Shown here one piece after another: positions 45,355 to 59,043 of a stretch of 64,000 nucleotides of DNA; the stretch's first letter is position 1, and every line of letters starts with the position of its first letter. The notes under the pieces are model-generated. The model saw only the letters and a program-made list of their open reading frames with translations, had not been told where the DNA came from and did no database searches. The translations under genes were made by a program, and so were the position numbers. This stretch comes from Aquibium oceanicum (lineage in GTDB: Bacteria; Pseudomonadota; Alphaproteobacteria; Rhizobiales; Rhizobiaceae): the NCBI RefSeq assembly GCF_001889605.1, contig NZ_CP018171.1, positions 868,001 to 932,000 on the forward strand. The letters run 5' to 3'.

Positions 45355-45380
45355 GGAACCCAACACCCCCATCGCATGTT
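45355..45380 (+). promoter_or_regulatory. EcfG-type promoter box for the PAP2 gene
   Basis: GGAAC (45355-45359), 17 bases, then TGTT (45377-45380), reading toward the PAP2 gene at 45416. The GTTCC that ends this box is the complement of the -35 of the opposite promoter. Confidence 0.5.
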
Positions 45381-45382
45381 CC
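45357..45382 (-). promoter_or_regulatory. EcfG-type promoter box for the EF-hand/PRC gene, overlapping the opposite box
   Basis: On the minus strand GGAAC (45382-45378), 17 bases, then GGTT (45360-45357). It superimposes almost base for base on the plus-strand box, forming a GGAAC...GTTCC palindrome. Confidence 0.5.
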
Positions 45383-45415
45383 GAGAAAATGTCGGATCGG
45401 AAGGATTAAGTCGGG

Positions 45416-46159
45416 ATGAGAAAAATCCCCTTCGCAGGGCGTCTGAAAAGTGTGGAATGGGAGGTTATCCTGGCCTTGCTGGTGCCCGCCGCCGCTGCGT
45501 GGGGCCTGATCGAACTCGCTGGCGAGGTGCTGGAAGGCAGCACCGCCGCCATGGACGAGCGGATCCTGCTGGCGTTCCGAAGCGCGTCGGACCTCGGCGA
45601 TCCGCTCGGACCTGCCTGGCTGGAAGAGATGATGCGCGACTTCACGGCGCTGGGAGGCATCGGCGTACTGACGCTCGTCACCTTCGCGGCCGCCGGCTAT
45701 CTCATGACGACCGGAAAGAAGCATGCCGCGCTTGCCGTGCTCGTCGCAGTCGGCGGCGGGATCCTCATCAGCACTCTGGTCAAGGAATTCGTCGACAGAC
45801 CGCGTCCCGACCTCGTACCGCACGGCTCCTACGTGACGTCGGCGAGTTTCCCGAGTGGCCATTCCATGATGGCGGCGACCGTCTATCTGACCTTGGCCGC
45901 GATGCTTGTGCGGGTGCAGCCTTTGTGGCGCACGCGTCTGCTCATCCTTTGCTCGGCGGTGTTCGTCGTCCTGCTGGTTGGCGTCAGCCGCGTTTATCTC
46001 GGCGTGCACTGGCCGACAGACGTACTCGCGGGATGGAGCGTCGGAGCAGGATGGGCGATCGGTTGCTGGCTAGTCACGCTCTGGCTGCAGCGCCGCGGAG
46101 CGGTCGAACCGGAGGCGAACATGCCGCAAAACTCGGTGCCACCGCCCGCCGGGCAATAG
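45416..46159 (+). CDS. PAP2-family membrane phosphatase
   Basis: A 247-residue integral membrane phosphatase with all three PAP2 motifs: K-x6-RP (KEFVDRPRP), PSGH (SFPSGHSMMAA) and SRxxxxxHxxxD (SRVYLGVHWPTD). It has about five or six membrane segments. Such enzymes dephosphorylate phosphatidate, phosphatidylglycerophosphate, undecaprenyl pyrophosphate or lipid A intermediates on the periplasmic side. It is divergent from the EF-hand gene and shares its stress-type promoter region. Confidence 0.92.
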   Translation: MRKIPFAGRLKSVEWEVILALLVPAAAAWGLIELAGEVLEGSTAAMDERILLAFRSASDLGDPLGPAWLEEMMRDFTALGGIGVLTLVTFAAAGYLMTTGKKHAALAVLVAVGGGILISTLVKEFVDRPRPDLVPHGSYVTSASFPSGHSMMAATVYLTLAAMLVRVQPLWRTRLLILCSAVFVVLLVGVSRVYLGVHWPTDVLAGWSVGAGWAIGCWLVTLWLQRRGAVEPEANMPQNSVPPPAGQ

Positions 46160-46178
46160 GGACGAGGCTCCGTAGAAC

Positions 46179-46529
46179 CTACTCGTCCGCGGGGAGCGGT
46201 TCGACCGGCTCGGCGGGTACGCGGCTCGGCGGTGGCGTCGCGCCGACTGCCTCGCCTTCGGGCACGCCTTCGATCGCCACACCTTCGTTCTTGTCGACCG
46301 GGGAATAACCGGGAATCTCTCCACCGGTGGTGGCCTGCGGCGTGAGATCGCGCTGGACCGTGGTCTGGTCCGCCGGCTGGACGCCGTCGATCAGATGATC
46401 CTCGGATCTCTCCGGTAGCAAGGTGTCGCCCACGGCCTCGGTATCGTCCTCGCCGCAAGCCGTCAGCGGAAGGGCCAGAGCCAGCGCCAAGGCACAGATT
46501 CGGATTGGTGTGCGCAGCGTCGTCATCAT
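46179..46529 (-). CDS. Small putative lipoprotein
   Basis: A 116-residue protein with a lipoprotein signal peptide (ICALALALALPLTAC, lipobox LTAC, lipidated Cys at about residue 22), then an acidic Pro- and Glu-rich tail without recognisable domain. GGAGG is 5 bases before the ATG at 46529. It lies 29 bases after the 46559-46954 gene and is probably co-transcribed with it. Function unknown. Confidence 0.7.
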   Translation of the reverse strand: MMTTLRTPIRICALALALALPLTACGEDDTEAVGDTLLPERSEDHLIDGVQPADQTTVQRDLTPQATTGGEIPGYSPVDKNEGVAIEGVPEGEAVGATPPPSRVPAEPVEPLPADE

Positions 46530-46558
46530 TCCTGCCTCCGTTGAATGTCCGCCGCCTC

Positions 46559-46954
46559 TCAAGGTGACGGGATGTTCGTGTAGACGGTCACGATCCCGTC
46601 TGCGGAGTAGGTGGCGGCGGTCACGTCGGAGATCGGAACGTTCCTGTCGCGAAGCGCTGCCTCGAACATCTCGTTCGCTTCCATTGCGGTGCGGACTTCC
46701 GCAAAGCCGTCCTCGGTGTTCATCAGGATATCCTGCAATACCTGGAGTTCGCGTCCGCTGAACTCGGCCAAGCTAACGACCTCCATCGTCCTGAAGGGCT
46801 GCGAGCCGCGAATCTCCTCGGCGCTGAGACTGTTCTCGCGCAGGTCGGTGATGATGTCGCGCGCGACCGGGACAGGCTGCGCCAGCAACGTGCCTGCGCC
46901 CAACCCGCTCGCGATCGCGCCAGCTAGAACGACTGCCGTGATGGTTCTTTTCAT
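46559..46954 (-). CDS. Small exported protein of unknown function
   Basis: A 131-residue protein with a signal peptide (TAVVLAGAIASGLGAGTLLAQ) and no family I recognise. The mature part has short amphipathic helices and an MEVVSLAEFSGRELQVLQ segment. It is first in a two-gene unit with the small lipoprotein and carries an EcfG-type box 79 bases upstream. The start at 46954 is set by the signal peptide. Confidence 0.7.
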   Translation of the reverse strand: MKRTITAVVLAGAIASGLGAGTLLAQPVPVARDIITDLRENSLSAEEIRGSQPFRTMEVVSLAEFSGRELQVLQDILMNTEDGFAEVRTAMEANEMFEAALRDRNVPISDVTAATYSADGIVTVYTNIPSP

Positions 46955-47032
46955 TTCCGATATCGCGGCCTTGGCAGCAGTCCTCTGTACCGCGGCCGCG
47001 CCTCTGTTTCGGTGATCGTTTCCTGTCCCGAT

Positions 47033-47057
47033 AACCTCGTCTCGGATGCATTGTTCC
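47033..47057 (-). promoter_or_regulatory. EcfG-type promoter box for the two-gene exported-protein unit
   Basis: Minus strand GGAAC (47057-47053), 16 bases, then GGTT (47036-47033), upstream of the gene starting at 46954. Confidence 0.5.
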
Positions 47058-47187
47058 GGTCGGAGGGACCTGTGGGGATACCTCTTCAGGGAGGATGCTC
47101 GGCTTTCCACCGACCACGAGTGCGGCGAATCCCGCCTGCTACAGGCGCATCGTCCACGCGAAGTCCATTATGGATTAGCCGGAGCGC

Positions 47188-47742
47188 CTACTCCCGCCCC
47201 GTCTTCACCTCCACGTCCTCGAAGGTCGCCTGGACAGGCTCGGCGAAGCGTTTGCCGTTCGTCTTGTCGTGCCGCGGGAAATCGGGTGCGGGGAATTCGA
47301 TGCGCAGCGTATAGCGCCCGTCTCCCGGCAGCGCCCAGTTGCGCCCGTAGTGGTAGAGGCCCGGATGCCACAGGAAAGGCATGTGTTCGGCGCCGACGAC
47401 GGTGCCGTCCTCCGTCATGACGGTAAGCGTCACGTCGAGGCCCGGGATGAACCGCTTGTCCGTCGCGTCGAGCACGGCGACCTCGAAATGGCAGTTCTCG
47501 CCGTCCGCCGGCTCGGTCCACACCAGCTTGCCGTGCTTCATCATGTACATGCCCTCCGCCTCCTCCTGGGCAAAGGCCACGATCATGTCGCCGCACTGTT
47601 GCGTCGCGCCGTTGTCGGCGACCTCGTTGGCCATGTACTGGAGCGACCGGAAGTAGGCGCTACCCTCTTCCTGCGCGAGCTTCAGCTGGTTGCGGTCGGC
47701 CTCGTCGGAGGGTTTCGCAGGCGGATTGTGTTCCTCGGCCAT
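47188..47742 (-). CDS. Iron-transport (Tp34/P19-like) family protein without signal peptide
   Basis: A 184-residue protein whose C-terminal part (EHMPFLWHPGLYHYGRNWALPGDGRYTLRI) resembles the Fe2+-binding periplasmic proteins of the Tp34/P19 family; His and Met residues there may bind metal. Unlike typical members it begins with a hydrophilic MAEEHNPPAKPSDE and has no leader, so a cytoplasmic location is likely. AGGAG is 6 bases before the ATG at 47742. An EcfG-type box is upstream. The family call is tentative. Confidence 0.6.
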   Translation of the reverse strand: MAEEHNPPAKPSDEADRNQLKLAQEEGSAYFRSLQYMANEVADNGATQQCGDMIVAFAQEEAEGMYMMKHGKLVWTEPADGENCHFEVAVLDATDKRFIPGLDVTLTVMTEDGTVVGAEHMPFLWHPGLYHYGRNWALPGDGRYTLRIEFPAPDFPRHDKTNGKRFAEPVQATFEDVEVKTGRE

Positions 47743-47773
47743 GATCGTCTCCTGTCTTCGTTCCTTGCGGTTG

Positions 47774-47798
47774 AACAGCGGAGTACCGGGCATGTTCC
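47774..47798 (-). promoter_or_regulatory. EcfG-type promoter box for the iron-transport-like gene
   Basis: Minus strand GGAAC (47798-47794), 16 bases, then TGTT (47777-47774), 32 bases upstream of the start at 47742. Confidence 0.5.
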
Positions 47799-47919
47799 CG
47801 CCCGGCGGGATCTGACGCGGATATGCCGATGGAAATTCTCACCGTGGCGAAAAGGCCAGCGCGGTGAACCTTGGTGCTTTCGCGAGCCAGTGCCCTGCCG
47901 CGGATCGTCGGACCGGGTT

Positions 47920-49176
<1,257 letters not shown>

Positions 49177-49352
49177 GCGGGCACTTGCGTTCGAGGTCCG
49201 GCCATCATCGACGGACTTCCCGCATGCTGCAATGGCGAACCTCTATGCCGCAGGCGCCGCAAGTTCCCGCCTGCGATTCCGGCGACCGTATCGCCTGCGG
49301 AGCGATCGAGAAGATGAACTGAGGGTCGGGCGAAACGTCGGTGCCGAGCCGG

Positions 49353-49547
49353 TCAGGCGGGCGGTACCGGCATCGCCGTCTCCGGCCACGACATCGCTAT
49401 CCAGCCGAAATAGATGAGAATGAGCCAGAAGGCCACGATCAGCAGGATCAGGCTCATCGGCGAGTAGCCCCAGCGGCGACTGTAGGGATAGACCGGTACG
49501 GTCGCGGCGAAGAGCACGATCAGGATGAGGAGTACGAGAAGTCCCAC
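49353..49547 (-). CDS. DUF3309 small membrane protein
   Basis: A 64-residue protein with two hydrophobic segments separated by YPYSRRWGYSPM, the signature of DUF3309. Function unknown; such genes are common near stress and osmotic genes in alphaproteobacteria. It lies 27 bases after the PRC-barrel gene and is probably read from the same EcfG-type promoter. Confidence 0.85.
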   Translation of the reverse strand: MGLLVLLILIVLFAATVPVYPYSRRWGYSPMSLILLIVAFWLILIYFGWIAMSWPETAMPVPPA

Positions 49548-49574
49548 GGCTATCTCCCTGGAGCGCTTGTTCGC

Positions 49575-50342
49575 TCAGATCCAGTATGCGGGATAGCCGT
49601 AGTAGTCATGGTACCGCTCCTCGTAGGCCCGGTCGACCGTCTGCGCCGGGTCGTACTCCGGCGCGCTCTTGATGCCATCCTTCGTGAGACTGGTGCTCAC
49701 GGTGCCGTCGTTCCAGTTCACCCTCCGGAACGACTTCGGGGAGACCAGCGTCTTCTTGCCCGGCCACCAGTTCTTTGTGTCGACGATCAGGTACCGCAAA
49801 GCCCAGCTATCGGCATCCAGCAGGAAATCCTCGACGTGGCCGATGTCGCCGTCCGAGGCGTGGATGTAGTAGCCGGTGACCTCGGACACGGAACGGAGAT
49901 TGGGATCACCCCGCGGCGCTGCCCCAGCTATCGCGTCATCGGAGCCTTCGAGGCTTCCGACGGCGCTCTCCGGAGGCACCGGGTTGGGCATGCCCGCCGC
50001 CGTGGCGTAGGGATAGCCGAGCCAGTAGGGTTCCCACCCGTAATAGCCGAAGACGTCGCTTTCCTGGAGCCGGGAAACGGGTGCGTCCGTATCGATCGAA
50101 GGGCTTTCTTCCACCATCTGGCGGGTGACGTTTACTCTCAGCTCGCGGGTTGCCGCCAGGGGCTCGCCGCAGGCTTCGGGAGGCAACAGAACCTTGCGGC
50201 CGCTGAGCCAGGTACCGGTGTCGACGACCAACCAACGGATCGTCCAGTCGTGATCGTCGAACAGGAGGTCGTCCACGGTGCCGATCTCGCCGTCCGTCGC
50301 CGCGATCATGTAGCCCATGAGGCTCGATGCGTTCCAAAGCAC
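49575..50342 (-). CDS. Protein with two PRC-barrel domains
   Basis: A 255-residue soluble protein. PRC-barrel 1 covers about residues 5-80 (SSLMGYMIAATDGEIGTVDDLLFDDHDWTI region, WLVVDTGTWLSGRKVL) and PRC-barrel 2 about 145-215 (DGDIGHVEDFLLDADSWALR, LIVDTKNWWPGKKTLVSP). The start is a GTG at 50342, which gives the usual MLWNASS beginning and has AAGGA 8 bases upstream. An EcfG-type box precedes it. PRC-barrels mediate protein-protein contacts; the role of these duplicated forms in stress is unknown. Confidence 0.85.
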   Translation of the reverse strand: MLWNASSLMGYMIAATDGEIGTVDDLLFDDHDWTIRWLVVDTGTWLSGRKVLLPPEACGEPLAATRELRVNVTRQMVEESPSIDTDAPVSRLQESDVFGYYGWEPYWLGYPYATAAGMPNPVPPESAVGSLEGSDDAIAGAAPRGDPNLRSVSEVTGYYIHASDGDIGHVEDFLLDADSWALRYLIVDTKNWWPGKKTLVSPKSFRRVNWNDGTVSTSLTKDGIKSAPEYDPAQTVDRAYEERYHDYYGYPAYWI

Positions 50343-50375
50343 TGGAAAAATCCTTCTTTGCTGGACTTCTCCCAC

Positions 50376-50400
50376 AACCGCCGCGCCCCCGATGTGTTCC
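50376..50400 (-). promoter_or_regulatory. EcfG-type promoter box for PRC-barrel and DUF3309 genes
   Basis: Minus strand GGAAC (50400-50396), 16 bases, then GGTT (50379-50376), 34 bases before the GTG start at 50342. Confidence 0.5.
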
Positions 50401-50607
50401 GCTCGACGGGTTGAAGAGGATGCCGTCCGCGGTTCGGATCGCCGGCATCGCCGAATTGGCGCTGTTTACGGCCGCGTTTCAAATCGTATGATCGACGAAG
50501 CCACCGGCTCGTGCCGTCGCAATAGAATGCAGGAGCCGATCGGCGTCCTTCGAGCGGCCAACCAGAAAAGAGCAGAGGGTTCCGGCTCTGCGCAACACAG
50601 GTGCAAG

Positions 50608-51150
50608 ATGAGCAATCAAGGACAGGAGGGCGGCGATCTGGACCCCCGGCCCGGGAGCACGCGGCAACTGGTGGTCCGGGTCTACCCGAGGATCGCACTC
50701 GCCTACTTTGTCGCGGCGACCTCGTGCCTGATGCTGATCGCCTTCCTGCTGATGATTTTCGCCTTCGTGGAAGTAGGCAACAGCATCTTCACCGGCGATC
50801 ACGTCGAGGCGGCGCTCAGCGCCATCAGCCTCCTGGTCATAGGGTTTGCGGTCGTGGAGACGGCGAAGTTCATCGCCGAGGAGGAGATTATGCGCAAGCG
50901 CGAACTCCGCTCCTCGACGGAATCCCGCCGCTCCATCACAAAGTTCATCACCATCATCGTCATCGCCGCCAGTCTCGAGGCGCTGGTTATGGTGTTCAAG
51001 GCGACCCGCGACGGAATCGAATACGCAGTTTATCCGGCGTTCCTGTTCATCGCGTCCATGCTGGCGCTCGTAGCCCTCGGCACATATCAGTGGCTGTCGA
51101 GCCGCATCGACAGCAGCAGCGATGAGCGGATGGACCACGGGGATTTGTGA
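50608..51150 (+). CDS. Four-helix membrane protein of unknown function
   Basis: A 180-residue protein with four predicted membrane segments (about residues 30-55, 67-88, 112-130 and 143-165) and basic cytoplasmic loops (EEEIMRKRELRSSTESRRS). I do not recognise a family. The ATG at 50608 is chosen because it lies just before the first helix; the frame is open further upstream. It is divergent from the PRC-barrel gene and has no clear promoter box. Confidence 0.7.
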   Translation: MSNQGQEGGDLDPRPGSTRQLVVRVYPRIALAYFVAATSCLMLIAFLLMIFAFVEVGNSIFTGDHVEAALSAISLLVIGFAVVETAKFIAEEEIMRKRELRSSTESRRSITKFITIIVIAASLEALVMVFKATRDGIEYAVYPAFLFIASMLALVALGTYQWLSSRIDSSSDERMDHGDL

Positions 51151-51215
51151 GAGGAAGCGGCCCCCGCGGCATTGCTTTCGCTCGCGTTCCGGATGCCGGG
51201 GTTCGCAGAAAAATC

Positions 51216-51926
51216 TCAGGTGCGCGAGTGGATGGCGAATGGCTCGGATCCAAGAGAGACCCGTCCGTCGGATGTCCGCACGACGAACTGTATCTCGTCC
51301 TCGGTTTCCGGGACCTCCGGCACCTCGACCTCCACGTTGAGCCGGCCGGCCGTATCAGCGGTCGCCCGCGTCAGCATGACGAATTCGTCCTGGATGATAG
51401 CCCCAACCAACACCTCCGCGCCGCCCGGAAGACCGGTCGCGGTGACTTCCACCTGGTCGCCGGGTACACCGGCCGTGCTCCCCACGAGAATTCCGGCGCC
51501 ACGATCGGGCGGCGCGCTGACGCCCGGCAAGCCCAGTCGCTCGCCGAATTCCAGGATATCGCGATTGAGATCCGGCTGGTCTGAGAGATAGTCGCTGACC
51601 GAGCGACCTGCCTCGGTTGCCGCGCCTTCGATCTGGCGGCCGGCATCGCGCACCGCGTCGCGTGCGCGGTCGGCCCAGCTGCGTTCCTCCTGTTGCGGCA
51701 GGAGCAGCACGAGGCCACCTTGCAGTTCGTCGCGGGACACGTCCGGATTGGCGGCAAGAATGGCTTCCACCGGCACGTTGCATCTTTCGGCGAACGCCCC
51801 GATCGATTCATCGGCGCGCAGTGCCTCGGCGTCCCCGCAACGCGACTGTGCACTGGCAACCCCGGACAGGAGCGGCGCCATCAGAAGGGCAGCTCCGAGC
51901 GCTTTCAAGTTGTTCGCCTTATTCAT
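51216..51926 (-). CDS. Exported LysM-domain protein
   Basis: A 236-residue protein with a signal peptide (LKALGAALLMAPLLSGVASAQ) and a LysM domain at about residues 38-78 (ESIGAFAERCNVPVEAILAANPDV), which binds peptidoglycan. A linker with a coiled-coil-like stretch (WADRARDAVRDAGRQIEGAA) leads to a C-terminal beta domain (GVPGDQVEVTATGLPGGAEVLV) resembling an Ig-like fold. GGGAG is 6 bases before the ATG at 51926. An EcfG-type box is 30 bases upstream. Confidence 0.8.
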   Translation of the reverse strand: MNKANNLKALGAALLMAPLLSGVASAQSRCGDAEALRADESIGAFAERCNVPVEAILAANPDVSRDELQGGLVLLLPQQEERSWADRARDAVRDAGRQIEGAATEAGRSVSDYLSDQPDLNRDILEFGERLGLPGVSAPPDRGAGILVGSTAGVPGDQVEVTATGLPGGAEVLVGAIIQDEFVMLTRATADTAGRLNVEVEVPEVPETEDEIQFVVRTSDGRVSLGSEPFAIHSRT

Positions 51927-51955
51927 CTGTTTCTCCCACGATCTCGTTCTTCTCG

Positions 51956-51980
51956 AACCGCCTGGGAGAGACAAAGTTCC
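51956..51980 (-). promoter_or_regulatory. EcfG-type promoter box for the LysM gene
   Basis: Minus strand GGAAC (51980-51976), 16 bases, then GGTT (51959-51956), directly in front of the LysM gene. Confidence 0.55.
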
Positions 51981-52034
51981 TGAGAGGCTCCCACGCTAGC
52001 AGCGCGATCGGCTCACGAGCGACAGATGCGCCAG

Positions 52035-52060
52035 GGAACACGAACTTGCCGCTCGCCGTT
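52035..52060 (+). promoter_or_regulatory. EcfG-type promoter box for proline-rich mini-protein 1
   Basis: GGAAC (52035-52039), 17 bases, then CGTT (52057-52060), with the -10 matching the consensus exactly, 28 bases before the ATG at 52088. Confidence 0.55.
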
Positions 52061-52087: not shown

Positions 52088-52252
52088 ATGGCCATCGCAC
52101 CGACACCGAATCCCCAGGACCAGCCGCCACCGGGGCCCATACCACCCACGCCCCCGCCGCGCCCGGTGCGCGAACCGCAGCCGGACAGGCTTCCGGACGA
52201 AGATCCCGGACCGAATCCGGATGAAGACGACAACCCGCCCATGCACGCCTGA
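52088..52252 (+). CDS. Proline-rich mini-protein 1
   Basis: A 54-residue, very hydrophilic protein: about one third proline, with a central PPPGPIPPTPPP run and an acidic end. No domain is known to me. Support for expression comes from an EcfG-type box upstream and GGAG 9 bases before the ATG. The second mini-protein at 57251-57424 has the same PPPGPxPP core, so these are two members of one unnamed family. Confidence 0.55.
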   Translation: MAIAPTPNPQDQPPPGPIPPTPPPRPVREPQPDRLPDEDPGPNPDEDDNPPMHA

Positions 52253-52354
52253 GGCGAGGCGAGGTCGGGCGCGCTCGCGGGACACGCTCGGCACTGCGTT
52301 GAGATCCAAAGTGGAATATCCCGAAGGAGCTTAGTTCCGCGCGGAGTGCTCCCC

Positions 52355-52380
52355 GGAACCATCAAAGCAAATCCGCCGTT
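52355..52380 (+). promoter_or_regulatory. EcfG-type promoter box for the 52443 gene and the EEP gene
   Basis: GGAAC (52355-52359), 17 bases, then CGTT (52377-52380), a full consensus match, 63 bases before the start at 52443. Confidence 0.55.
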
Positions 52381-52442
52381 GTCGTGCGAAATGGCACAGC
52401 CGGCTGACAGGCTGGGAGCTGGGCCTCATGTGGAGCTCTATA

Positions 52443-52775
52443 ATGGACAGGTTTCAAAAGACGCTGGCGGTAAGCATCCTTCTGAGTTTTGCATCGCTGA
52501 CCCCGGCCGCCTCGCAGGACAACGGCCTATCCGGCACCGCGGAAGGTGATCCGTGCGTTGCGGAGCCGGAGGAACTGGGCGGCGGGAACGACGCGAAGGT
52601 CTCGAACGACACCCTGTCGCTTACCGAGCAGCTCGACCGTTGCGGCGGGGTGATCGAACCGCCGGCGGTCGGTGACCGGGAACTAGTCGAGCCGGCTCCC
52701 GAAACAGGCGCCACCCCGATCATTCCGCCCAGTGCCTTGCCGGAGCAGCAGCCTGCGGAAGGGGACGCCGGGTGA
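52443..52775 (+). CDS. Small exported protein of unknown function
   Basis: A 110-residue protein with a signal peptide (TLAVSILLSFASLTPAASQ) and an acidic, Pro-rich mature part with two cysteines (DPCVAEPEE and LDRCGGVIEPP), which could form a disulfide. The ATG at 52443 has GGAG 7 bases upstream; an ATG 15 bases earlier is possible. It ends 15 bases before the endonuclease/phosphatase gene and probably shares its transcript. Confidence 0.65.
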   Translation: MDRFQKTLAVSILLSFASLTPAASQDNGLSGTAEGDPCVAEPEELGGGNDAKVSNDTLSLTEQLDRCGGVIEPPAVGDRELVEPAPETGATPIIPPSALPEQQPAEGDAG

Positions 52776-52790
52776 GCGCTCCCGCCTGAC

Positions 52791-53588
52791 ATGCCACGAC
52801 TTCGCGTCCTGACCTACAATGTACGGCGATGCCTGGGCGTCGATGGCGTCATGTCTCCGGCTCGCATCGCTGCGGTGATCGCGGAGGCGGAACCCGACAT
52901 CATCGCTTTGCAGGAACTTGACGTGCGCCGCATCCGCAGCGGCGGCGTCGACCAGGGGGAGGAAGTCGCCCGCGAGCTGGGGTTCTCGTTCGTCCACTTC
53001 CACCCGGCGCTGCGCGTGCTGGAGGAGGAGTACGGGGATGCGATCCTCACGTCGCGTCCCTCCCGCATTGTCAAGGCTGGGGCCCTGCCGGGGCTCCCGA
53101 GCCGGCCGCGGCTGGAGCCACGCGGCGCCTTGTGGGCGGCGGTTCAGATCGACGGTGCCGAGGTCAACGTCATCAACACCCACCTGGGACTGCGGCGGCT
53201 GGAGCGGTGGCTGCAGGCGCAGATGCTGATGAGCGACGAGTGGCTGGGCAGCGAGGCCTGCCGGTCGCCAGTCGTGCTGACGGGAGATTTCAACTCCTTC
53301 CCGCGCGGTCGCGTCTATGGGCTCCTGTCGGGCAGGTTGCGGGACGCGCACCTGATCGGATCGACGATGGGGCGACCGAGCGCCACTTTCCCCTCGCAAT
53401 GGCCGGTGTTCAGGATCGACCACATGTTCGTCAGCGACGACGTGGAGGTGGTTTCCGCCCGCACCCATCGCAGTGAAACGAGTGCGCTCGCGTCCGACCA
53501 TCTGCCGCTCGTGGCCGACCTGAGACTGCCCGAGACCGACCGGGAGGCTTCCGCCAGCCGCGGTCTTCCCGAGAGGCTGCAAGCCTGA
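52791..53588 (+). CDS. Endonuclease/exonuclease/phosphatase family protein (YbhP-like)
   Basis: A 265-residue EEP-fold metal-dependent phosphoesterase with TYNVRRCLG at the N-terminus, the catalytic ALQELD Glu at about residue 43, GDFNSFPRG (Asp/Asn, about 165) and the final SDHLPLVADL Asp-His. Together with the UPF0104 gene next to it and the PLD-type synthase facing it, it reproduces the gene set ybhP-ybhO(clsB)-ybhN of E. coli, so a phospholipid-related substrate is plausible. Confidence 0.88.
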   Translation: MPRLRVLTYNVRRCLGVDGVMSPARIAAVIAEAEPDIIALQELDVRRIRSGGVDQGEEVARELGFSFVHFHPALRVLEEEYGDAILTSRPSRIVKAGALPGLPSRPRLEPRGALWAAVQIDGAEVNVINTHLGLRRLERWLQAQMLMSDEWLGSEACRSPVVLTGDFNSFPRGRVYGLLSGRLRDAHLIGSTMGRPSATFPSQWPVFRIDHMFVSDDVEVVSARTHRSETSALASDHLPLVADLRLPETDREASASRGLPERLQA

Positions 53589-53667
53589 GATCCATCTGCG
53601 GTCGACGCGCGCGCTCCACAGCTTCGCGGAAGTTCCTTGGGATCGCTCCGGGGGTTCGGGCGTTTGA

Positions 53668-54711
53668 TTGCTTTGCAACGGAATTGGTCATTTGACTGAC
53701 ATCTCCAAGGACATCAGCTATCCCGACGCTTTCGACAGCAACCACCGGGAGAGAAGCTGGAGCGAACGGCTCCGCAACCTCCGGCCTCCTCTTGGCCTGA
53801 GTTGGTCGGCATGGCTAGGATTGGTTGCCGTTCTTCTCGCCGGCTTCCTGCTCTACCGCACATTGAGCGGCTACAGCCTCGGGCAACTCGCCGATTCGAT
53901 CTCGACCATCCCGATCTGGCGGCTCGGAGCGGCGCTGGGTTTCGCCGCCGCGAGTTACGCGTGCCTGACCGTCTTCGACTACCTGGCGCTCCGCTACGTC
54001 AAGCATCCGCTGCCATATCCGAAGGCGGCCCTCACTTCCTTTTCGGCGCTCTCGCTCGGCCACAGCATCGGTTTTTCCGGCTTGAGCAGCGGAGCGATCC
54101 GCTACCGCTTCTATTCCAGATGGGGCCTCTCGATCGGCGAAGTCGCGAAACTCGTTCTGTTTTGCGGCACCACGGTGGCTCTGGGGATGATCGCGCTCGG
54201 CGGTATCGCGCTACTCCTGGAGAGCGAGGCCGCGACGGAACTCACAGGTTTCGGCCGCGCGAGCGTCGTAGCGCTTGGCGCTGCCTGCCTGGCTTCTCTG
54301 GCGATCTATCTTGCGCTCGCTGCCTGGGTACGTAAGCCGCTCAAGTTCCGGAAGTGGGAAATCGAGATGCCGTCCTTGCGCCTCGCGCTGGCGCAGGTGG
54401 GCATCGGCGCGGCGAATTTCGCCTGCGTCGCGGCATGCCTCCACCAGACCATCAGCGCGTTCGCCGAGGTTCCTTACGTCACCGTTGCGGCGGCCTTCAT
54501 CATTGCCAACACAGCGGCCTTGCTCGCGCACGTCCCCGGCGGGCTCGGGGTAATCGAGGCCGTGGTGGTCCATCTGATTTCGCAGGACGGGGTCATCGCG
54601 GCAGTGCTGGTTTTCCGTTTCGTCTATTTCCTCGTGCCGCTGGCCGTGGGAGCTGTGACGTTCGGTATTGCCGAACTGGTGCTCAGGCGGAAGGCCGCCT
54701 CAGCGTCCTAG
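53668..54711 (+). CDS. UPF0104 / lysylphosphatidylglycerol-synthase-like flippase domain protein (YbhN-like)
   Basis: A 347-residue membrane protein with about eight hydrophobic segments. SLGHSIGFSGLSSGAIRYRFYSRWG and AHVPGGLGVIEAVVVHL are hallmarks of the UPF0104/LPG-synthase transmembrane domain. The soluble synthase domain of MprF is missing, so it would move or protect a lipid rather than aminoacylate it. The start is uncertain: TTG at 53668 is annotated, a TTG at 53692 has a slightly better leader. Its 3' end overlaps the convergent PLD-type gene by 12 bases. Confidence 0.85.
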   Translation: MLCNGIGHLTDISKDISYPDAFDSNHRERSWSERLRNLRPPLGLSWSAWLGLVAVLLAGFLLYRTLSGYSLGQLADSISTIPIWRLGAALGFAAASYACLTVFDYLALRYVKHPLPYPKAALTSFSALSLGHSIGFSGLSSGAIRYRFYSRWGLSIGEVAKLVLFCGTTVALGMIALGGIALLLESEAATELTGFGRASVVALGAACLASLAIYLALAAWVRKPLKFRKWEIEMPSLRLALAQVGIGAANFACVAACLHQTISAFAEVPYVTVAAAFIIANTAALLAHVPGGLGVIEAVVVHLISQDGVIAAVLVFRFVYFLVPLAVGAVTFGIAELVLRRKAASAS

Positions 54712-56253
54712 CTTCCGCTTGCGCCAGAACCGGTCCCACAAACGCAGAACGCGGAACGGACGGGCCGGGTCGAGAAGCTTTGTGCCCCAGACCGGATGGT
54801 CGGGACCGTGGTCCGACATTGCCTCGAAGGGCATGAGGCGGCGTTCGCCACCGTTCAGTCGCTCCAGCGCCGCGATGACGGAGCCTTCCTCCTCGACCGC
54901 CCGGTTGAAGGCCTGCGGCTCGGCGCCGACGTGCTCGGCGAGCAGGCGATCCCGGATGGAGGTGATCGCGCGCCGGCTCTCCTCGTCCGTGCCTTCCAGG
55001 GCGAGGTCGCATTCCGTGTCGAGGCCGATAGACCGATTGTTGAGGTTGGACGACCCGATACGAAGGAATTCCTCGTCGATGATCACGACCTTCGAATGCA
55101 CGAAGATCTGCGACGTCTCGTCTCCCTTGTTGATGCAGGGGTAGAGGATGCGCATGCGGCCGTACCTATCGGCTTTGCGCAGGCGCCGGATCAGTCGGTC
55201 GCGGTTGGTCCCCATGACCCAGCGCTCGATGATGCCGTTGCACTCGTGCGCCATGACGACCACGATCTCGGGTCCGACCGGGGTTTGCAGATGGCGTTCC
55301 AGTATGTCTCCGAGGACAGACGAGGTCATGTACTGCGCTTCGATGTAGATGGACTTCTTCGCGCTTCGCAACGCGTCCATCGTCAGGTCCATCGCTTCCC
55401 GAACGGGGAGGTTGTCTAGGAACTCCGGCATCGTCCGCGCGATCGCGATATCGATTCCGGTGAAGTCGGCGGGCAGGGCGGGAGGCCACGCATCGCCAGA
55501 CTGGTGGCTGCAAACGGGCGGACAGTCCCGTCCGATCGCGGTGCGCCAGCGCTCCTTGGCAAGCTCCGAGAGCGCGACCGCGGCATCGCCATCCACGACC
55601 ATCTGCACGTCGTGCACCGGTTGGTAGGTCTCGCCGTTCGGGCTCGTCCGCAACGGATCGCCCATTGCATGAGAGCAGCTGTCCCACCGGCCGACCGTCA
55701 GGTCCATTCCGCCGCAATAGGCGAGCTCGTCGTCGATGGTGACGATCTTCTGGTGATGGGCGGCGTAAATAGGGTGGTAGGTGTCGAGCTTCACGCGGAT
55801 GCGCGGATGCTCCTGCCACGGCGCGCCGAACAGCATCTCGGATGTGGAACCCGGCGCATGGACGACCGACTCGCTCCACATGAGGATCCTCACCTCGAGC
55901 CCCTCGTGTTCCTCCACCAGTTTGCGCAGCAGGTCTCCGAGCGGCGGCGATTCCTGTGGTTCAACATCGGGCCGCAGCCGGATCCGTCCATCGAAGTCCC
56001 AGCCAAGGATGACGATCGATTGCCGGGCGAGCCGAAGCGAGGCTTCGAGCGCCGCGAAATAGTCGGCGCCATCGACGATCACCGAGGCCCGCCGGGCGCG
56101 GGCAACCTTCCAACAATTCTTTCCGTCGCGGATCACCGGTTGGCGTGTTCCGGACGGCACGAGACCCTCCTCATGCCGGTACGGCTCCAGATGGGTGATG
56201 CGGTCGATCGGTTGGTCTTCGGTACGAAACACTGCTTCGAATGCAGCCGACAT
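54700..56253 (-). CDS. Phospholipase D / cardiolipin synthase family protein (ClsB-like)
   Basis: A 517-residue cytoplasmic PLD-superfamily enzyme with both HKD motifs: HQKIVTIDDELAYCGGMD (about residue 170) and HSKVVIIDEEFLRIGSSNLNNRS (about residue 390). It has no N-terminal membrane helices, like ClsB and unlike ClsA. The ATG at 56253 is preferred over a GTG at 56295 because an EcfG-type box (56281-56305) covers that GTG. It is likely to make cardiolipin or phosphatidylglycerol, or to cleave phosphodiesters, under stress. Confidence 0.88.
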   Translation of the reverse strand: MSAAFEAVFRTEDQPIDRITHLEPYRHEEGLVPSGTRQPVIRDGKNCWKVARARRASVIVDGADYFAALEASLRLARQSIVILGWDFDGRIRLRPDVEPQESPPLGDLLRKLVEEHEGLEVRILMWSESVVHAPGSTSEMLFGAPWQEHPRIRVKLDTYHPIYAAHHQKIVTIDDELAYCGGMDLTVGRWDSCSHAMGDPLRTSPNGETYQPVHDVQMVVDGDAAVALSELAKERWRTAIGRDCPPVCSHQSGDAWPPALPADFTGIDIAIARTMPEFLDNLPVREAMDLTMDALRSAKKSIYIEAQYMTSSVLGDILERHLQTPVGPEIVVVMAHECNGIIERWVMGTNRDRLIRRLRKADRYGRMRILYPCINKGDETSQIFVHSKVVIIDEEFLRIGSSNLNNRSIGLDTECDLALEGTDEESRRAITSIRDRLLAEHVGAEPQAFNRAVEEEGSVIAALERLNGGERRLMPFEAMSDHGPDHPVWGTKLLDPARPFRVLRLWDRFWRKRKLGR

Positions 56254-56555
56254 AGGCGGAACTCCACGGGACGGATGGAAAACTCCTTTCTCCACAAGCG
56301 GTTCCCTTCGCGGGGAATGCGCTGCTGCGCCACCTTGCTCGAGCGCGGATGCGGCCCCGGCGCCGGTTCGGGGAACAGGTCACGCTTCGTGGAGTCATTT
56401 CGCGGCTGTTCTGCGAATCGTCCGAGGTGACGGTGCCAGGACGAAGCGCGAAAGGAATATTCCCATGCCCTGAACGCATTGGTGATCTTCTCCGCTGCTG
56501 GCGGCAAGCTGCTACATCGCCGTTGGCGCGGCGGGTCTTCGTCCCGGTGAGGCGA
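56254..56555. other. Intergenic gap with stress promoter at one end, otherwise empty
   Basis: The left end holds the Shine-Dalgarno and EcfG-type box of the PLD-type gene. The remaining 250 bases up to the sodC stop contain no open frame with family resemblance and no clear hairpin. Confidence 0.5.
56281..56305 (-). promoter_or_regulatory. EcfG-type promoter box for the PLD/cardiolipin synthase gene
   Basis: Minus strand GGAAC (56305-56301), 16 bases, then AGTT (56284-56281). The first base of the -10 is atypical. It places the transcription start just upstream of the ATG at 56253. Confidence 0.45.
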
Positions 56556-57080
56556 TTACTGCCTGATTACGCCACAGGCGATGCGGTCGCCCGCATCTCC
56601 CGACGGCTGGCTCGTGTAGTCATCGGCGCCGGAATCCACGACCACGGCCGAGCCGTCCTCATCCATCAGCGGATTGTCGCCGCCATCGAGCGACAGCCGG
56701 TCGGTGAAGAACTCCAGCTTCACGACGCCGTTCTCCGCCGCGTGCACGTTGGGGAAATCGCCGGGATGCGGTCCGCCGTCGCTCTCCACGCCGTGGGAAT
56801 GGTCGCCCGCATAGTGGCCACCGGCGGATTCGAAGCCGCCATCGACCGTGCACTCGCCGGTCTCATGCACGTGAAAACCGTGCGGACCCGGCGGCAGGTC
56901 GGTCAGTTCCACGATCACCTGCAGCATGCCGGACCGGGTCGTGTTGAAGGTAACGGTCCCGACCTCGACTTCGTCCCGGTTGATCATGTTGGCGGATGCC
57001 GAGATAGACTGGGCCGGAGCCTGCCCGCTGAACGCGAGGGTGATCGTGGCGGCGAGTGCGGTGGCGGCTGGAATTCTCAT
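56556..57080 (-). CDS. sodC: Copper/zinc superoxide dismutase
   Basis: Periplasmic enzyme that dismutates superoxide. The 174-residue protein has a signal peptide (ALAATITLAFSGQAPAQ), Cu ligands in HGFHVHETGEC, the bridging and Zn ligands in GGHYAGDHSH and PHPGDFPNVHA, and the closing cysteine in AGDRIACGVI that pairs with the ETGEC cysteine. All metal ligands are in place. No EcfG-type box was found upstream, so it may have another promoter. Confidence 0.95.
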   Translation of the reverse strand: MRIPAATALAATITLAFSGQAPAQSISASANMINRDEVEVGTVTFNTTRSGMLQVIVELTDLPPGPHGFHVHETGECTVDGGFESAGGHYAGDHSHGVESDGGPHPGDFPNVHAAENGVVKLEFFTDRLSLDGGDNPLMDEDGSAVVVDSGADDYTSQPSGDAGDRIACGVIRQ

Positions 57081-57184
57081 TGTGACGTCTCCTCAAGAAG
57101 GTCTTCGCCAGACAACAACTCGGGCATGTGGATGGTTGCCTTACCATGCGGGAAATGGGCGATGGGCGGCGCCGGGTGCGGATC

Positions 57185-57209
57185 GGAACCTTGAGCCATC
57201 CCTTCGGTT
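57185..57209 (+). promoter_or_regulatory. EcfG-type promoter box for mini-protein 2 and the DUF982 genes
   Basis: GGAAC (57185-57189), 16 bases, then GGTT (57206-57209), 42 bases before the ATG at 57251; the three following genes are closely spaced and probably one transcript. Confidence 0.5.
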
Positions 57210-57250
57210 ACCTATCGACACACTTGAATTCGGCAAGAGGAATGCTCGCG

Positions 57251-57424
57251 ATGGCCAACCTGCGAATTTTCGACCGACAATTCGCCGTTCACGAAGCGAA
57301 CCGTGGAACGGAACCCATCCCCATGCCCGGTCCCACGCCTCCGCCCGGTCCGTTGCCGCCGGACCCCGTCCCGCAGCCTGATCCCTCGCCCGTTCCGACC
57401 CGCGGCGCGGGATTGCTGGCATAG
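57251..57424 (+). CDS. Proline-rich mini-protein 2
   Basis: A 57-residue protein: a short polar N-terminus (MANLRIFDRQFAVHEANRG) and a tail of about fifteen prolines with a PPPGPLPPDP core like that of mini-protein 1. GAGGAA precedes the ATG. It is the first gene of a three-gene unit with two DUF982 genes and an EcfG-type box in front. Function unknown. Confidence 0.6.
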   Translation: MANLRIFDRQFAVHEANRGTEPIPMPGPTPPPGPLPPDPVPQPDPSPVPTRGAGLLA

Positions 57425-57437
57425 GAGAAGACTGGAG

Positions 57438-57707
57438 ATGCGTGACGGCCCGTTCGAAACGCCCGTGACCGTAGAACTTCCGCGCTCCAAGGTGCGGCGG
57501 ATTGCGAGCGCGCGCGAGGCCGTGGAGTGTCTCCTCTATCAATGGCCGTGTTCCAACGGGCGCGGTCATCGCCATGCGCAGATGGCCTGCGTTTCCGCTC
57601 TCCAGGGGAGCAAGTCTCCCCGCTACGCACAACGGGCCTTCCAGGAAGCGGCCCGCGAAGCCCGGATCCTGCGGGGGCAGGCCGGCGAGAAGAAGGAGTT
57701 TGTGTGA
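57438..57707 (+). CDS. DUF982 protein, copy 1
   Basis: An 89-residue protein of the DUF982 family, nearly confined to Hyphomicrobiales. It has FETPVTVELPRSKVRRIASAREAVECLL at the N-terminus and FQEAAREARIL at the end, both typical. Function unknown. GGAG lies just before the ATG at 57438. The stop overlaps the start of the second copy (TGATG). Confidence 0.85.
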   Translation: MRDGPFETPVTVELPRSKVRRIASAREAVECLLYQWPCSNGRGHRHAQMACVSALQGSKSPRYAQRAFQEAAREARILRGQAGEKKEFV

Positions 57708-57943
57708 TGGCAAAGGAATTCGAGCAGGCCGTTGTGATCGATGGCCCCGTCGGGCAGGTCGAGGTCGCCACCGCCCGGCAGGCATACGACGTCCTCTCCG
57801 ATCCAGCCTGGCCGGATCGAGGCCCCGCGCACGAAGAAGCAGTTGAGACGGCCCTGAAGGTCCTGGACGGCCATCGCTCGACCGTCGATGCATATGACAC
57901 GTTCCTCCGGGCGGCGAAGGAAGCGGGAAATCTCGTAGAGTAA
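57707..57943 (+). CDS. DUF982 protein, copy 2
   Basis: A 78-residue paralog of copy 1, recognisable by VVIDGPVGQVEVATARQAYDVL, the RGPAHEEAVETALKVLDG helix and the FLRAAKEAG tail. The two differ enough that the duplication is not recent. It is translationally coupled to copy 1 and ends before a strong bidirectional terminator. Confidence 0.8.
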   Translation: MAKEFEQAVVIDGPVGQVEVATARQAYDVLSDPAWPDRGPAHEEAVETALKVLDGHRSTVDAYDTFLRAAKEAGNLVE

Positions 57944-57989
57944 TATCGTTCCCCGCAAGACTGCCGGATCGATGACCTGGCAATCAGGA

Positions 57990-58023
57990 AAATGGCCTCC
58001 CGCGGATAAGCAGGAGGCCATTT
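57990..58023. terminator. Bidirectional terminator between DUF982 and DUF892 genes
   Basis: Perfect 11-bp stem AAATGGCCTCC/GGAGGCCATTT with a 12-base loop between convergent genes. The outer A and T tracts act as U-tracts in either direction. Confidence 0.75.
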
Positions 58024-58047
58024 ACTCTCGACGCAGCCGTAGACCGG

Positions 58048-58548
58048 TCAGGCGGCCTTCTTCGCCTTGGGGTTGGCGATTTTGCCGGCAAGCTTGGTCA
58101 GGTCCGTGTCGGTTTTCGATTCCTGCTGCAGCGTCTCGTCGAGCAGCTTGGCCGCATCGGTCATGCCGAGTGTTTCGGCCCAGCGCTTCAGGGTGCCGTA
58201 GCGGGTGATCTCGTAGTGCTCCACGGCCTGTGCGGAGGAGACTAGACCGGCATCGAGAGCGTCGGTGCCCTTGTATTCGTCCATGATCTCCTCGCCCTCG
58301 GAGATGATGCCCTCGATCGCGTCGCAGGTCTTGCCCTGGGCGCGCTTGCCGATGATCTCGAACACCTGCTGCAGGCGTTCGATCTGACCTTCCGTCTCGT
58401 CCTTGTGCTTCTGGAAAGCCTGCTTCAACTCGTCGGAAGAGGCGGCACGCGCCATCTTCGGGAGCGCCTTCAGGATCTTGCGTTCGGCGTAGTAGATGTC
58501 CTTGAGCGTGTCGTGGAAGAGGTCTTCGAGCGTCTTTTCTTTTGCCAT
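58048..58548 (-). CDS. DUF892 ferritin-like protein (YciE/YciF family)
   Basis: A 166-residue four-helix protein of the YciF family with LEDLFHDTLKDIYYAERKILKALPKMA at the N-terminus, an iron-type Glu/His set in DELKQAFQKHKDETEGQIERL and AQAVEHYEITRYGTL, and a Lys/Ala tail. YciF-type proteins are induced by salt and general stress. AGGAA precedes the ATG at 58548, and an EcfG-type box is 54 bases upstream. Confidence 0.92.
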   Translation of the reverse strand: MAKEKTLEDLFHDTLKDIYYAERKILKALPKMARAASSDELKQAFQKHKDETEGQIERLQQVFEIIGKRAQGKTCDAIEGIISEGEEIMDEYKGTDALDAGLVSSAQAVEHYEITRYGTLKRWAETLGMTDAAKLLDETLQQESKTDTDLTKLAGKIANPKAKKAA

Positions 58549-58601
58549 CTTCTGGGTTCCTCTGGAATTTGAGCATCTGCGCATATGCACAGCCCGCCTT
58601 A

Positions 58602-58626
58602 AACATGGACCCCGAAGAATCGTTCC
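58602..58626 (-). promoter_or_regulatory. EcfG-type promoter box for the DUF892 gene
   Basis: Minus strand GGAAC (58626-58622), 16 bases, then TGTT (58605-58602), between the end of the BA14K-like gene and DUF892. Confidence 0.55.
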
Positions 58627-58633
58627 ACCCGCT

Positions 58634-58999
58634 TCAGCGGGTACACGACCGTCGTTCGCCTTCGTATGGCTGGAAGGTACAATCGGACGCCCTGAACGAG
58701 CGATAGGCATCCGAACAGGCGGCGATGTCGCAGAGCGGGGCCGCGTCCGGTTCCGTCGAGCCGACAAGGATATCGCTTGCCGGAGACTGCATGTCCTCGG
58801 AATCCTGCGCTTGCGCTCTGCCCTGTGAATCCACGTTCGCTTGCCGCTCTAAAAAGACCGTCCGGGCAACTTTCGTTTCGGAGGTCCCGGCCTGCAGTGC
58901 CAGTGCGCCGAGTGAAAGAATCACCACTGCGATGAAACCGAAGACGCTTCCGCCGTCGGTACGAGGGGTTTCGACGTGGATACGCTTCTTCCTGGACAT
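58634..58999 (-). CDS. BA14K-like membrane-anchored protein
   Basis: A 121-residue protein with one membrane segment at about residues 23-40 (GFIAVVILSLGALALQAG) and a C-terminal motif CSDAYRSFRASDCTFQPYEG ending RRSC, which resembles the BA14K repeat (C-RYRSYD...YLGYDG-R-HPC) of Brucella and related rhizobia. BA14K proteins are lectin-like immunoreactive surface proteins. Two overlapping EcfG-type boxes lie so close to the ATG at 58999 that the message is almost leaderless. Confidence 0.6.
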   Translation of the reverse strand: MSRKKRIHVETPRTDGGSVFGFIAVVILSLGALALQAGTSETKVARTVFLERQANVDSQGRAQAQDSEDMQSPASDILVGSTEPDAAPLCDIAACSDAYRSFRASDCTFQPYEGERRSCTR

Positions 59000-59007
59000 A
59001 GCCGGCA

Positions 59008-59043
59008 AACGGGAGAGAACTGTCGATGTTCCGCGCCCGTTCC
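59008..59043 (-). promoter_or_regulatory. Two overlapping EcfG-type boxes before the BA14K-like gene
   Basis: Minus strand GGAAC (59032-59028)-N16-CGTT (59011-59008) is a full consensus match. A second GGAAC (59043-59039)-N17-AGTT (59021-59018) is staggered by 10-11 bases. The first would start transcription within a few bases of the ATG. Confidence 0.5.

What the first reader, a model, noticed from the sequence alone, without database searches (positions are those of the whole stretch)
45355..59043. General-stress (EcfG/RpoE2) regulon packed in one 14-kb island
GGAAC followed after 16-17 bases by nGTT occurs within about 80 bases of the start of twelve transcription units between 45.3 and 59.1 kb, in the right orientation each time (boxes at 45355+, 45357-, 47033-, 47774-, 50376-, 51956-, 52035+, 52355+, 56281-, 57185+, 58602-, 59008-), and once more before the response regulator at 410-434. 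The base before GTT is C in four, G in five, T in three, A in one. Chance would give far less than one match over this many short leaders. The genes fit the theme: ferritin-like, PRC-barrel, EF-hand, LysM, lipid and DUF982 proteins. AI-2E, NhaP, the 50608 gene, UPF0104, sodC and SH3 genes lack the box. Several hypothetical genes (46559, 52443, 52088, 57251) gain a role from it.
Basis: partly seen in the sequence, partly recalled or inferred. Interest (0 to 1): 0.75.

Follow-up and report, generated by a model that had tools for sequence, protein, structure and literature searches.

The report
Clustered EcfG stress-response promoters
Most genes in a 14-kb stretch of this bacterium's chromosome appear to carry, or to follow, the switch for the cell's all-purpose stress response, and one of those switches may be built to read out in both directions.

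Summary
In detail: all 12 listed boxes, and 410-434, are where stated. They lie 27-78 nt before likely starts, one gene apart (8 or 18 nt). They far exceed chance: 13 matches in 13.7 kb against 8 in 320 kb sampled elsewhere, at the EcfG spacings only. The genome has phyR-nepR-ecfG plus three ecfG paralogues, and boxes are kept before some orthologues while spacers change. So this is a cluster of EcfG general-stress genes, a known kind. Corrections: it is not the only cluster (others at 448-480 and 530-566 kb), and several genes called box-less probably share upstream boxes; sodC has a variant box (not above chance alone). The new part is the 45355 box, which is symmetric: the -10 of one strand is the -35 of the other. 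It is present in 4 of 4 genomes found with this divergent pair, the window's included, all one genus. Against a two-way promoter: no significant excess of symmetric sites order-wide, and in two of the four genomes the PAP2 start would lie only 8 nt from the box. No expression was measured.

The parts
45355..45382 (.). Symmetric EcfG-type box GGAAC-N18-GTTCC between two divergent genes; forward box 45355-45380 faces PAP2, reverse box 45357-45382 faces the EF-hand/PRC gene
   Evidence: present in 4 of 4 PAP2 loci with this neighbour, the window's included; both arms invariant in a 4-way alignment
44063..45319 (-). EF-hand + PRC-barrel protein, start 37 nt from box
   Evidence: Pfam PRC 4.8e-15, EF-hand; box distance
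42897..43952 (-). AI-2E family transporter, next gene after EF-hand/PRC on the same strand; no own box; next to a relative of that gene also in L064, and next to a PRC-half match in L195 and L199
   Evidence: Pfam, best leader match 3 mismatches, neighbours
45416..46159 (+). PAP2 phosphatase, start 35 nt from box
   Evidence: Pfam 5.2e-26
47033..47057 (-). EcfG-type box of hypothetical 46559-46954
   Evidence: kept in L064, the only relative found
46559..46954 (-). hypothetical protein (131 aa)
   Evidence: no Pfam match for the longer frame 46559-47110; orthologue with box in L064
46179..46529 (-). small gene directly after 46559; relatives in L081, L189 and L197 have their own box, that in L064 does not
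47774..47798 (-). EcfG-type box of the Fe2+-transport-like gene
47188..47742 (-). Iron_transport (PF10634) family protein
   Evidence: Pfam 1.4e-07 for the longer frame 47188-47793
47920..49176 (-).
   Evidence: best leader match has 3 mismatches
50376..50400 (-). EcfG-type box of PRC-barrel gene
49575..50342 (-). double PRC-barrel protein (GTG start proposed)
   Evidence: Pfam 4.2e-12
49353..49547 (-). DUF3309 protein after the PRC gene; relatives in L195 and L199 have boxes 118 and 123 nt upstream
   Evidence: Pfam 6e-12
50608..51150 (+). the 50608 gene, no box
51956..51980 (-). EcfG-type box of LysM-like gene
52035..52060 (+). EcfG-type box of proline-rich small ORF
52088..52252 (+). 54-aa proline-rich protein
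   Evidence: weak matches in six loci with the low-complexity filter off, one of them boxed; could be composition alone
52355..52380 (+). EcfG-type box of 52443-EEP-UPF0104 unit
   Evidence: box near the start in 3 of 4 relatives (L064, L097, L089; not L065), 0 of 2 (L195, L199)
52443..52775 (+). hypothetical protein, first gene of the unit
52791..53588 (+). endonuclease/exonuclease/phosphatase (EEP) family protein
   Evidence: Pfam 1.4e-19
53668..54711 (+). UPF0104 / MprF-flippase-like membrane protein, last gene of the unit
   Evidence: PF03706 7.7e-11; MprF model 5.7e-55 but below NCBIfam cut-off
56281..56305 (-). EcfG-type box of PLD gene
   Evidence: box near the start of 12 of 24 alphaproteobacterial relatives
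54700..56253 (-). phospholipase D / cardiolipin-synthase-like protein
   Evidence: PLDc_2 2.1e-15; cardiolipin synthase models hit below cut-off
57114..57139 (-). possible variant box GCAAC-N17-TGTT 33 nt before sodC
   Evidence: GCAAC named as one of the two most frequent EcfG -35 boxes in Sphingopyxis (passages of PMC7083833); not above chance by itself
   Evidence: translation; its 82%-identical relative in L097 has no perfect box
57185..57209 (+). EcfG-type box of Pro-rich / DUF982 / DUF982 unit
57251..57424 (+). 57-aa proline-rich protein
   Evidence: next to DUF982 also in L065 (boxed) and L097 (no box)
57438..57707 (+). first DUF982 protein
   Evidence: Pfam 2.8e-18
57701..57943 (+). 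second DUF982 protein
   Evidence: Pfam 9.5e-11
58602..58626 (-). EcfG-type box of DUF892 gene
   Evidence: box at 3 of 3 relatives found (L081, L195, L199)
58048..58548 (-). DUF892 (ferritin-like) protein
   Evidence: Pfam 2e-62 for the longer frame 58048-58767
59018..59043 (-). EcfG-type box of BA14K gene (overlaps the alternative box 59008-59032)
58634..58999 (-). BA14K-like protein
   Evidence: Pfam 4.4e-09 for the frame 58634-59008
410..434 (-). EcfG-type box of a response regulator gene (2-334 or 2-379, runs off the window)

Best explanation
The 44-59 kb stretch is one of several clusters of general-stress-response genes in an alphaproteobacterium near Aquibium/Mesorhizobium. Under stress, phosphorylated PhyR binds the anti-sigma factor NepR and frees EcfG-type sigma factors. 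EcfG-RNA polymerase then starts transcription at about 11 GGAAC-N16/17-nGTT sites here. Through short operons these probably serve 18 genes (19 with sodC), of envelope, phospholipid, iron/oxidant and unknown functions. Shown here: boxes, spacing preference, placement, the sigma/anti-sigma/PhyR genes, and boxes before part of the orthologues. Inferred: EcfG dependence, operon membership, stress induction. The box between PAP2 and the EF-hand/PRC gene is symmetric and may drive both genes.
For: Exact boxes, 13 in 13.7 kb, placed before starts in the right direction. Only k=17 and 18 (GGAAC to GTT) are enriched: in the island; in the window plus two clusters (34 and 13, other spacings 1-8); and in 31 alphaproteobacterial loci (74 and 24, other spacings 6-14), but not in 49 other loci (16-33 at every spacing). 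NepR E=1.4e-14 beside EcfG and PhyR; three more EcfG paralogues. A perfect box ends 61 nt before the phyR ATG. Relatives with a box: EF-hand/PRC including its N-terminal part in L064, L188, L189, L197; PAP2 in L064, L189, L197; DUF892 in 3 of 3; PLD in 12 of 24. The cluster at 530-566 kb holds trehalose-phosphate synthase and phosphatase, Ku and LigD.
Against: No transcript data. Half of the PLD relatives (12 of 24) and 22 of 30 PAP2 loci, the window's own among the 30, have no exact box, so membership varies by lineage or the exact pattern is too strict. No relative of the Fe-transport or LysM-like genes turned up in the fetched loci, so their boxes stand on position alone. Relatives of the PRC gene 49575 in L195 and L199 have no box within 250 nt of the full-length start, and 52443 has none there either. 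The sodC relative in L097 has no perfect box. Which EcfG protein acts here is unknown.
Confidence: 0.93

Rival explanations
1. The boxes are sites of another ECF sigma factor with a GGAAC-like -35 element, not of EcfG.
For: Passages of PMC6180224 report that 27 of 40 RpoE6 targets in Sinorhizobium overlap the RpoE2 regulon. Four weak sigma-like matches outside the EcfG and PhyR set exist in this genome.
Against: GTT as -10 at 16-17 bases plus one is the published EcfG consensus (passages of PMC4814048 and PMC7083833), and phyR of this genome carries the same perfect box.
Confidence: 0.05
2. The symmetric 45355 box is only a one-way EcfG promoter whose -10 happens to be followed by CC; the other gene uses a different promoter.
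For: Symmetric sites are not significantly more frequent than at a shifted spacing: 902 against 839 in the 117 of 297 genomes that I counted, P=0.10. In L189 and L197 no PAP2 start lies at 35 nt; the in-frame ATG nearest upstream of the match is only 8 nt after the box, so PAP2 would need a leaderless message or another start there. At ecfG (L031 9908) a symmetric box has a gene on one side only. All four genomes are of one genus, so they are one evolutionary event.
Against: All ten arm bases, CC included, are invariant in 4 genomes against 3 of 18 spacer columns. The 4 PAP2 loci with the divergent EF-hand/PRC neighbour have the symmetric form, and the 4 boxed PAP2 loci without it have a one-way box.
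Confidence: 0.4
3. The symmetric sites are dyad operators of a dimeric repressor or activator.
For: GGAAC-N17/18-GTTCC is an inverted repeat.
Against: GGAAC and GTT at the same spacing occur without dyad symmetry in front of the other boxed island genes, which a dimer operator would not explain.
Confidence: 0.05

Closest known systems
EcfG (ECF15)/NepR/PhyR general stress response of Alphaproteobacteria
   Same: Same promoter consensus and spacing, same regulator locus with divergent phyR, several EcfG paralogues, a box before phyR.
   Different: Many target genes lie in dense clusters; no ecfG gene lies inside the window cluster. The passages I read do not describe such clusters or symmetric boxes.
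RpoE2 regulon of Sinorhizobium and EcfG regulons of Methylobacterium and Sphingopyxis
   Same: Same consensus; Ku, LigD and trehalose genes, expected in such regulons (expectation recalled), lie in the cluster at 530-566 kb.
   Different: The window cluster is rich in envelope, phospholipid-type and small unknown proteins.
ybhP-clsB-ybhN operon of enterobacteria (named in passages of PMC9241728)
   Same: An EEP-family gene, a PLD-type cardiolipin synthase-like gene and a UPF0104-like membrane gene side by side (domain kinds of ybhP and ybhN recalled).
   Different: Here PLD is on the opposite strand and the ClsB model score is far below cut-off (30 against 281 bits): likeness by domain content, not tested homology.
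Bidirectional bacterial promoters (known for the housekeeping sigma factor; recalled)
   Same: One element with two opposite starts.
   Different: Here -35 and -10 of an ECF sigma factor would exchange roles on the two strands.

Membership tests
EcfG general stress regulon | GGAAC-N16/17-nGTT promoter close upstream of the gene | tested here: met
   not met with the perfect consensus for NhaP, 50608, SH3 and sodC
EcfG general stress regulon | Genome encodes EcfG, NepR and PhyR | tested here: met
EcfG general stress regulon | Promoter kept upstream of orthologues in other Alphaproteobacteria | tested here: met
   met in part of the relatives for EF-hand/PRC, PAP2, 46559, 52443, PLD and DUF892; not met for PRC49575 in L195 and L199; no relative found for the Fe-transport and LysM-like genes
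EcfG general stress regulon | Expression lost without ecfG or phyR and raised by stress | not testable with these tools
   no transcript data for this organism
Bidirectional promoter (symmetric box) | Both arms conserved as -35 and -10 of each strand | tested here: met
   4 of 4 loci with the gene pair, one genus; ten arm bases invariant
Bidirectional promoter (symmetric box) | A start at promoter distance on both sides | tested here: inconclusive
   35 and 37 nt in the window, much the same in L064; in L189 and L197 the EF-hand/PRC side fits but the nearest upstream in-frame PAP2 ATG is 8 nt from the box
Bidirectional promoter (symmetric box) | Symmetric boxes more frequent than chance | tested here: inconclusive
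   15 symmetric and 115 one-way at EcfG spacing, 8 and 189 at 14 other spacings, P=0.0096, in a set with about one locus set per genus; with the neighbouring spacings 16 and 19 in the control, 12 and 218, P=0.026; no significant excess order-wide
Bidirectional promoter (symmetric box) | Two divergent transcription starts from one element | not testable with these tools
   needs start-site mapping
Mobile genomic island | Integrase, flanking repeats or odd composition | not tested
   G+C of the whole window (0.652) is within that of sampled stretches (0.636-0.673); nothing else examined

The most novel reading that the evidence does not exclude
EcfG promoters are half palindromic by nature: AAC of the -35 is the reverse complement of GTT of the -10, so CC after the -10 makes a second, opposite EcfG promoter from the same 27-28 bp. 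Stress-gene clusters of Alphaproteobacteria use this to lock divergent gene pairs such as PAP2 and EF-hand/PRC to one shared sigma-factor element, gained or lost by two bases.
Probability: 0.45. Interest if true: 0.6.

Novelty: new member of a known kind. Interest (0 to 1): 0.45.

Why it matters
It gives promoter-level reasons to place about ten uncharacterised genes (46559, 46179, 52088, 52443, 57251, two DUF982, DUF3309, DUF892, BA14K) in the general stress response, and links the PLD gene of an EEP/UPF0104/PLD module to that response in about half of the alphaproteobacterial relatives looked at. If the symmetric box is a two-way promoter, it is a simple design in which one sigma factor reads the same few bases in opposite directions.

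Tried and rejected
Chance clustering: rejected. A single island: rejected, because dense clusters also lie at 448-480 kb (18 matches in 32 kb) and 530-566 kb (13 in 36 kb). The backwards-pattern control of the genome search was not used for symmetric sites, because its counts follow a different composition; a shifted spacing was used instead. Symmetric sites as a frequent feature across the order: not supported (902 against 839 in the first 117 of 297 listed genomes; I did not count the other 180; P=0.10). The symmetric box at L031 8276 and those at L189 16314 and L197 16072 as one orthologous promoter: rejected after alignment; the shared small gene lies on opposite sides. mis-assigned the strand of some PAP2 loci and were replaced. 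My first statement that both starts lie 35-38 nt from the box in all four genomes was wrong for PAP2 in L189 and L197: those distances were extrapolated from the alignment, and one search shows no start there. A paper search for clustered EcfG regulons returned 1,722 papers, and none of the 15 listed held 'ecfg', so it says little. My simple gene caller missed small genes; starts were taken instead.

The split into 31 alphaproteobacterial and 49 other loci is mine, from record titles; L067 ('Proteobacteria bacterium') was put with the alphas and L118 with the others. For the PLD count, the own paralogue (L033) and one locus cut off before the start (L064) were left out.
Full report
Where it is. 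The window is bases 868001-932000 of the 5.16-Mb main contig of a 5.32-Mb genome with two contigs. The genus search covered five genomes, the window's own included. One of them, G177, has a contig of 405034 bases, the same length as the record titled Aquibium sp. ELW1220, so the genus is probably Aquibium, near Mesorhizobium; this is an inference from the contig length.

The observation. Pattern GGAAC-N16/17-NGTT matches 16 times in the window, against a mean of 1.99 and a maximum of 7 in 100 shuffles. All 12 boxes of the finding and the one at 410-434 are there. Two other matches, at 2096 and 19713, are unlikely to be promoters: the first has no listed start downstream and lies inside the 1463-3064 gene on the other strand, and the second overlaps the 5' end of a called gene. 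From box end to likely start, the island distances are 35, 37, 78, 31, 33 (to a GTG), 29, 27, 62, 27, 41, 53 and 8 or 18 nt. Sliding the spacing, the island has 8 matches with 17 bases and 5 with 18 bases between GGAAC and GTT, and 0 or 1 at each of 20 other spacings. So the spacing, not composition, stands out.

There are 246 matches in the genome. Sixteen sampled 20-kb stretches hold 8 in 320 kb, close to the chance level. The island has 13 in 13.7 kb. But 448-480 kb has 18 in 32 kb and 530-566 kb has 13 in 36 kb. The regulon therefore lies in several clusters. By position, the first contains an ecfG paralogue (457342-457887) with a box 23-38 nt upstream; the second contains another (554366-554842) with no same-strand match close upstream. 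The second cluster carries trehalose-phosphate synthase and phosphatase, a Ku protein and LigD, and its translations include more glycan/trehalose-type enzymes and a second Ku-like protein (names by eye). None of the nine sigma-like matches found in the genome lies in the window.

The regulators. At 4.857 Mb lie NepR (Pfam E=1.4e-14), an EcfG-type sigma factor, and divergent PhyR with both sigma-like domains and a receiver domain. A perfect box ends 61 nt before the phyR ATG. Reading the sequence, the nepR side has GGAAC-N16-CATT; CATT is one of the -10 boxes studied in Sphingopyxis (passages of PMC7083833).

Operons and corrections. 46179, DUF3309, EEP, UPF0104 and two DUF982 genes follow boxed genes on the same strand, so they likely share those promoters (inference from spacing); the first DUF982 gene, 57438-57707, was not in the finding. 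In L189, L197 and L081 the 46179 relative has its own box, as does DUF3309 in L195 and L199. sodC has GCAAC-N17-TGTT 33 nt upstream; passages of PMC7083833 name GGAAC and GCAAC as the two most frequent -35 boxes of such promoters. But GCAAC matches are not enriched at that spacing in the window, and the sodC relative in L097 has no perfect box, so sodC stays uncertain. NhaP, the 50608 gene and SH3 remain without a convincing box.

Conservation. Around relatives of the EEP gene, 31 alphaproteobacterial loci (563 kb) have 98 matches, against 17 for the reversed pattern; 49 other loci (811 kb) have 40 against 34. The spacing scan gives 74 and 24 at the EcfG spacings in the former (6-14 at others) and no peak in the latter. 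These loci include several Methylobacterium, so they are not independent. In L064 (an uncultured Mesorhizobium record) boxes are kept before EF-hand/PRC, PAP2, 46559 and 52443 with changed spacers. DUF892 is boxed in 3 of 3 relatives, PLD in 12 of 24, UPF0104 in 2 of 21. Five of twelve fetched family loci with an EF-hand/PRC match had no box at all (L190, L192, L193, L194, L196); their matches cover mainly the PRC half.

The two-way box. 45355-45382 reads GGAAC-N18-GTTCC. Each strand has its own -35 and -10, and the -10 of one lies on the -35 of the other. Of 394 family genomes 178 had a PAP2 match; I examined the 30 best loci, the window's own included. Four have a symmetric box, and those are exactly the 4, all of one genus, whose divergent neighbour is EF-hand/PRC; 4 others have a one-way box; 22 have none; 14 other spacings gave 1 match in all. 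In the 4-way alignment all ten bases of GGAAC and GTTCC are invariant, against 3 of 18 spacer columns, and the spacer length varies by one; the window and L064 are close relatives, so the force comes from L189 and L197. A point against: in those two the start of EF-hand/PRC lies 35-38 nt from the box, but no PAP2 start lies at the distance seen in the window. The nearest upstream in-frame ATG is 8 nt after the box in both, so PAP2 would need a leaderless message or another start.

Frequency of symmetric boxes. Following GTT, CC occurs in 32 of 98 matches at EcfG spacing and 4 of 108 at other spacings in the alphaproteobacterial loci (a symmetric site counts twice). In seven family loci it is 16 of 57 against 8 of 63; in the own phyR locus 2 of 9 against 4 of 8, which does not help. 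With about one locus set per genus there are 15 symmetric and 115 one-way at EcfG spacing, 8 and 189 at 14 other spacings, P=0.0096. That control left out the neighbouring spacings 16 and 19; with them it is 12 and 218, P=0.026. Over the first 117 of 297 listed genomes of the order there are 902 symmetric sites against 839 at a shifted spacing, P=0.10. True two-way boxes are therefore few per genome at best. In one search symmetric sites had called genes on both sides in 3 of 4 own cases and 7 of 16 in relatives; one-way boxes had both in 12 of 39 and 22 of 66; the gene caller is imperfect.

Literature. Seen as passages only: PMC8103513, PMC6180224, PMC4814048, PMC7083833, PMC9241728. PMC6599016 was searched for six divergent/bidirectional-type terms and had none. 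A search for EcfG with bidirectional promoter found 0 papers. Related searches listed 3, 9, 19, 25 of 26, 8 and 15 of 1,722 papers; I saw titles and abstract starts, and none of these describes a symmetric ECF promoter or clustered EcfG regulon. The library is open-access only, so this is weak evidence of novelty.

Verdict. Confirmed, and the EcfG reading is well supported; the regulon is of a known kind. The packing and the symmetric box are the parts worth a test.

Noticed in passing
window 57438-57707: A first DUF982 gene directly before the known one, probably sharing the 57185 box through an operon.
   Followed up: yes
window 52791-56253: EEP, UPF0104 and PLD genes side by side resemble the enterobacterial ybhP-clsB-ybhN operon by domain content; the PLD gene is EcfG-boxed in 12 of 24 alphaproteobacterial relatives.
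   Followed up: partly
G000:C1:4969028-4969525: A fourth EcfG-like sigma factor whose match contains one in-frame TAG; it may be broken or mis-bounded.
   Followed up: no
L200 6267-6293 (G000 near 4.853 Mb): Another symmetric EcfG-spaced box near the phyR locus, between an AI-2E family paralogue and a small gene.
   Followed up: partly
L031 8276-8303, L189 16314-16341, L197 16072-16099: A small gene (MxSYxKSxAAE...) sits at a symmetric box in three genomes, but on opposite sides of it and with different partners.
   Followed up: partly
L189 9371-9469 and L197 9849-9947: PAP2 of two relatives has its nearest upstream in-frame ATG only 8 nt after the box, as the 59008 box has before BA14K in the window; this could mean leaderless stress messages.
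   Followed up: partly
window 59350-60204: SH3-domain protein with a repetitive RRGWRDDD-like tail.
   Followed up: no
Methylobacterium loci L073, L075, L077, L078, L079, L083, L088: Symmetric EcfG-spaced box upstream of the PLD gene in several species; in some a large gene is called on the other side.
   Followed up: partly
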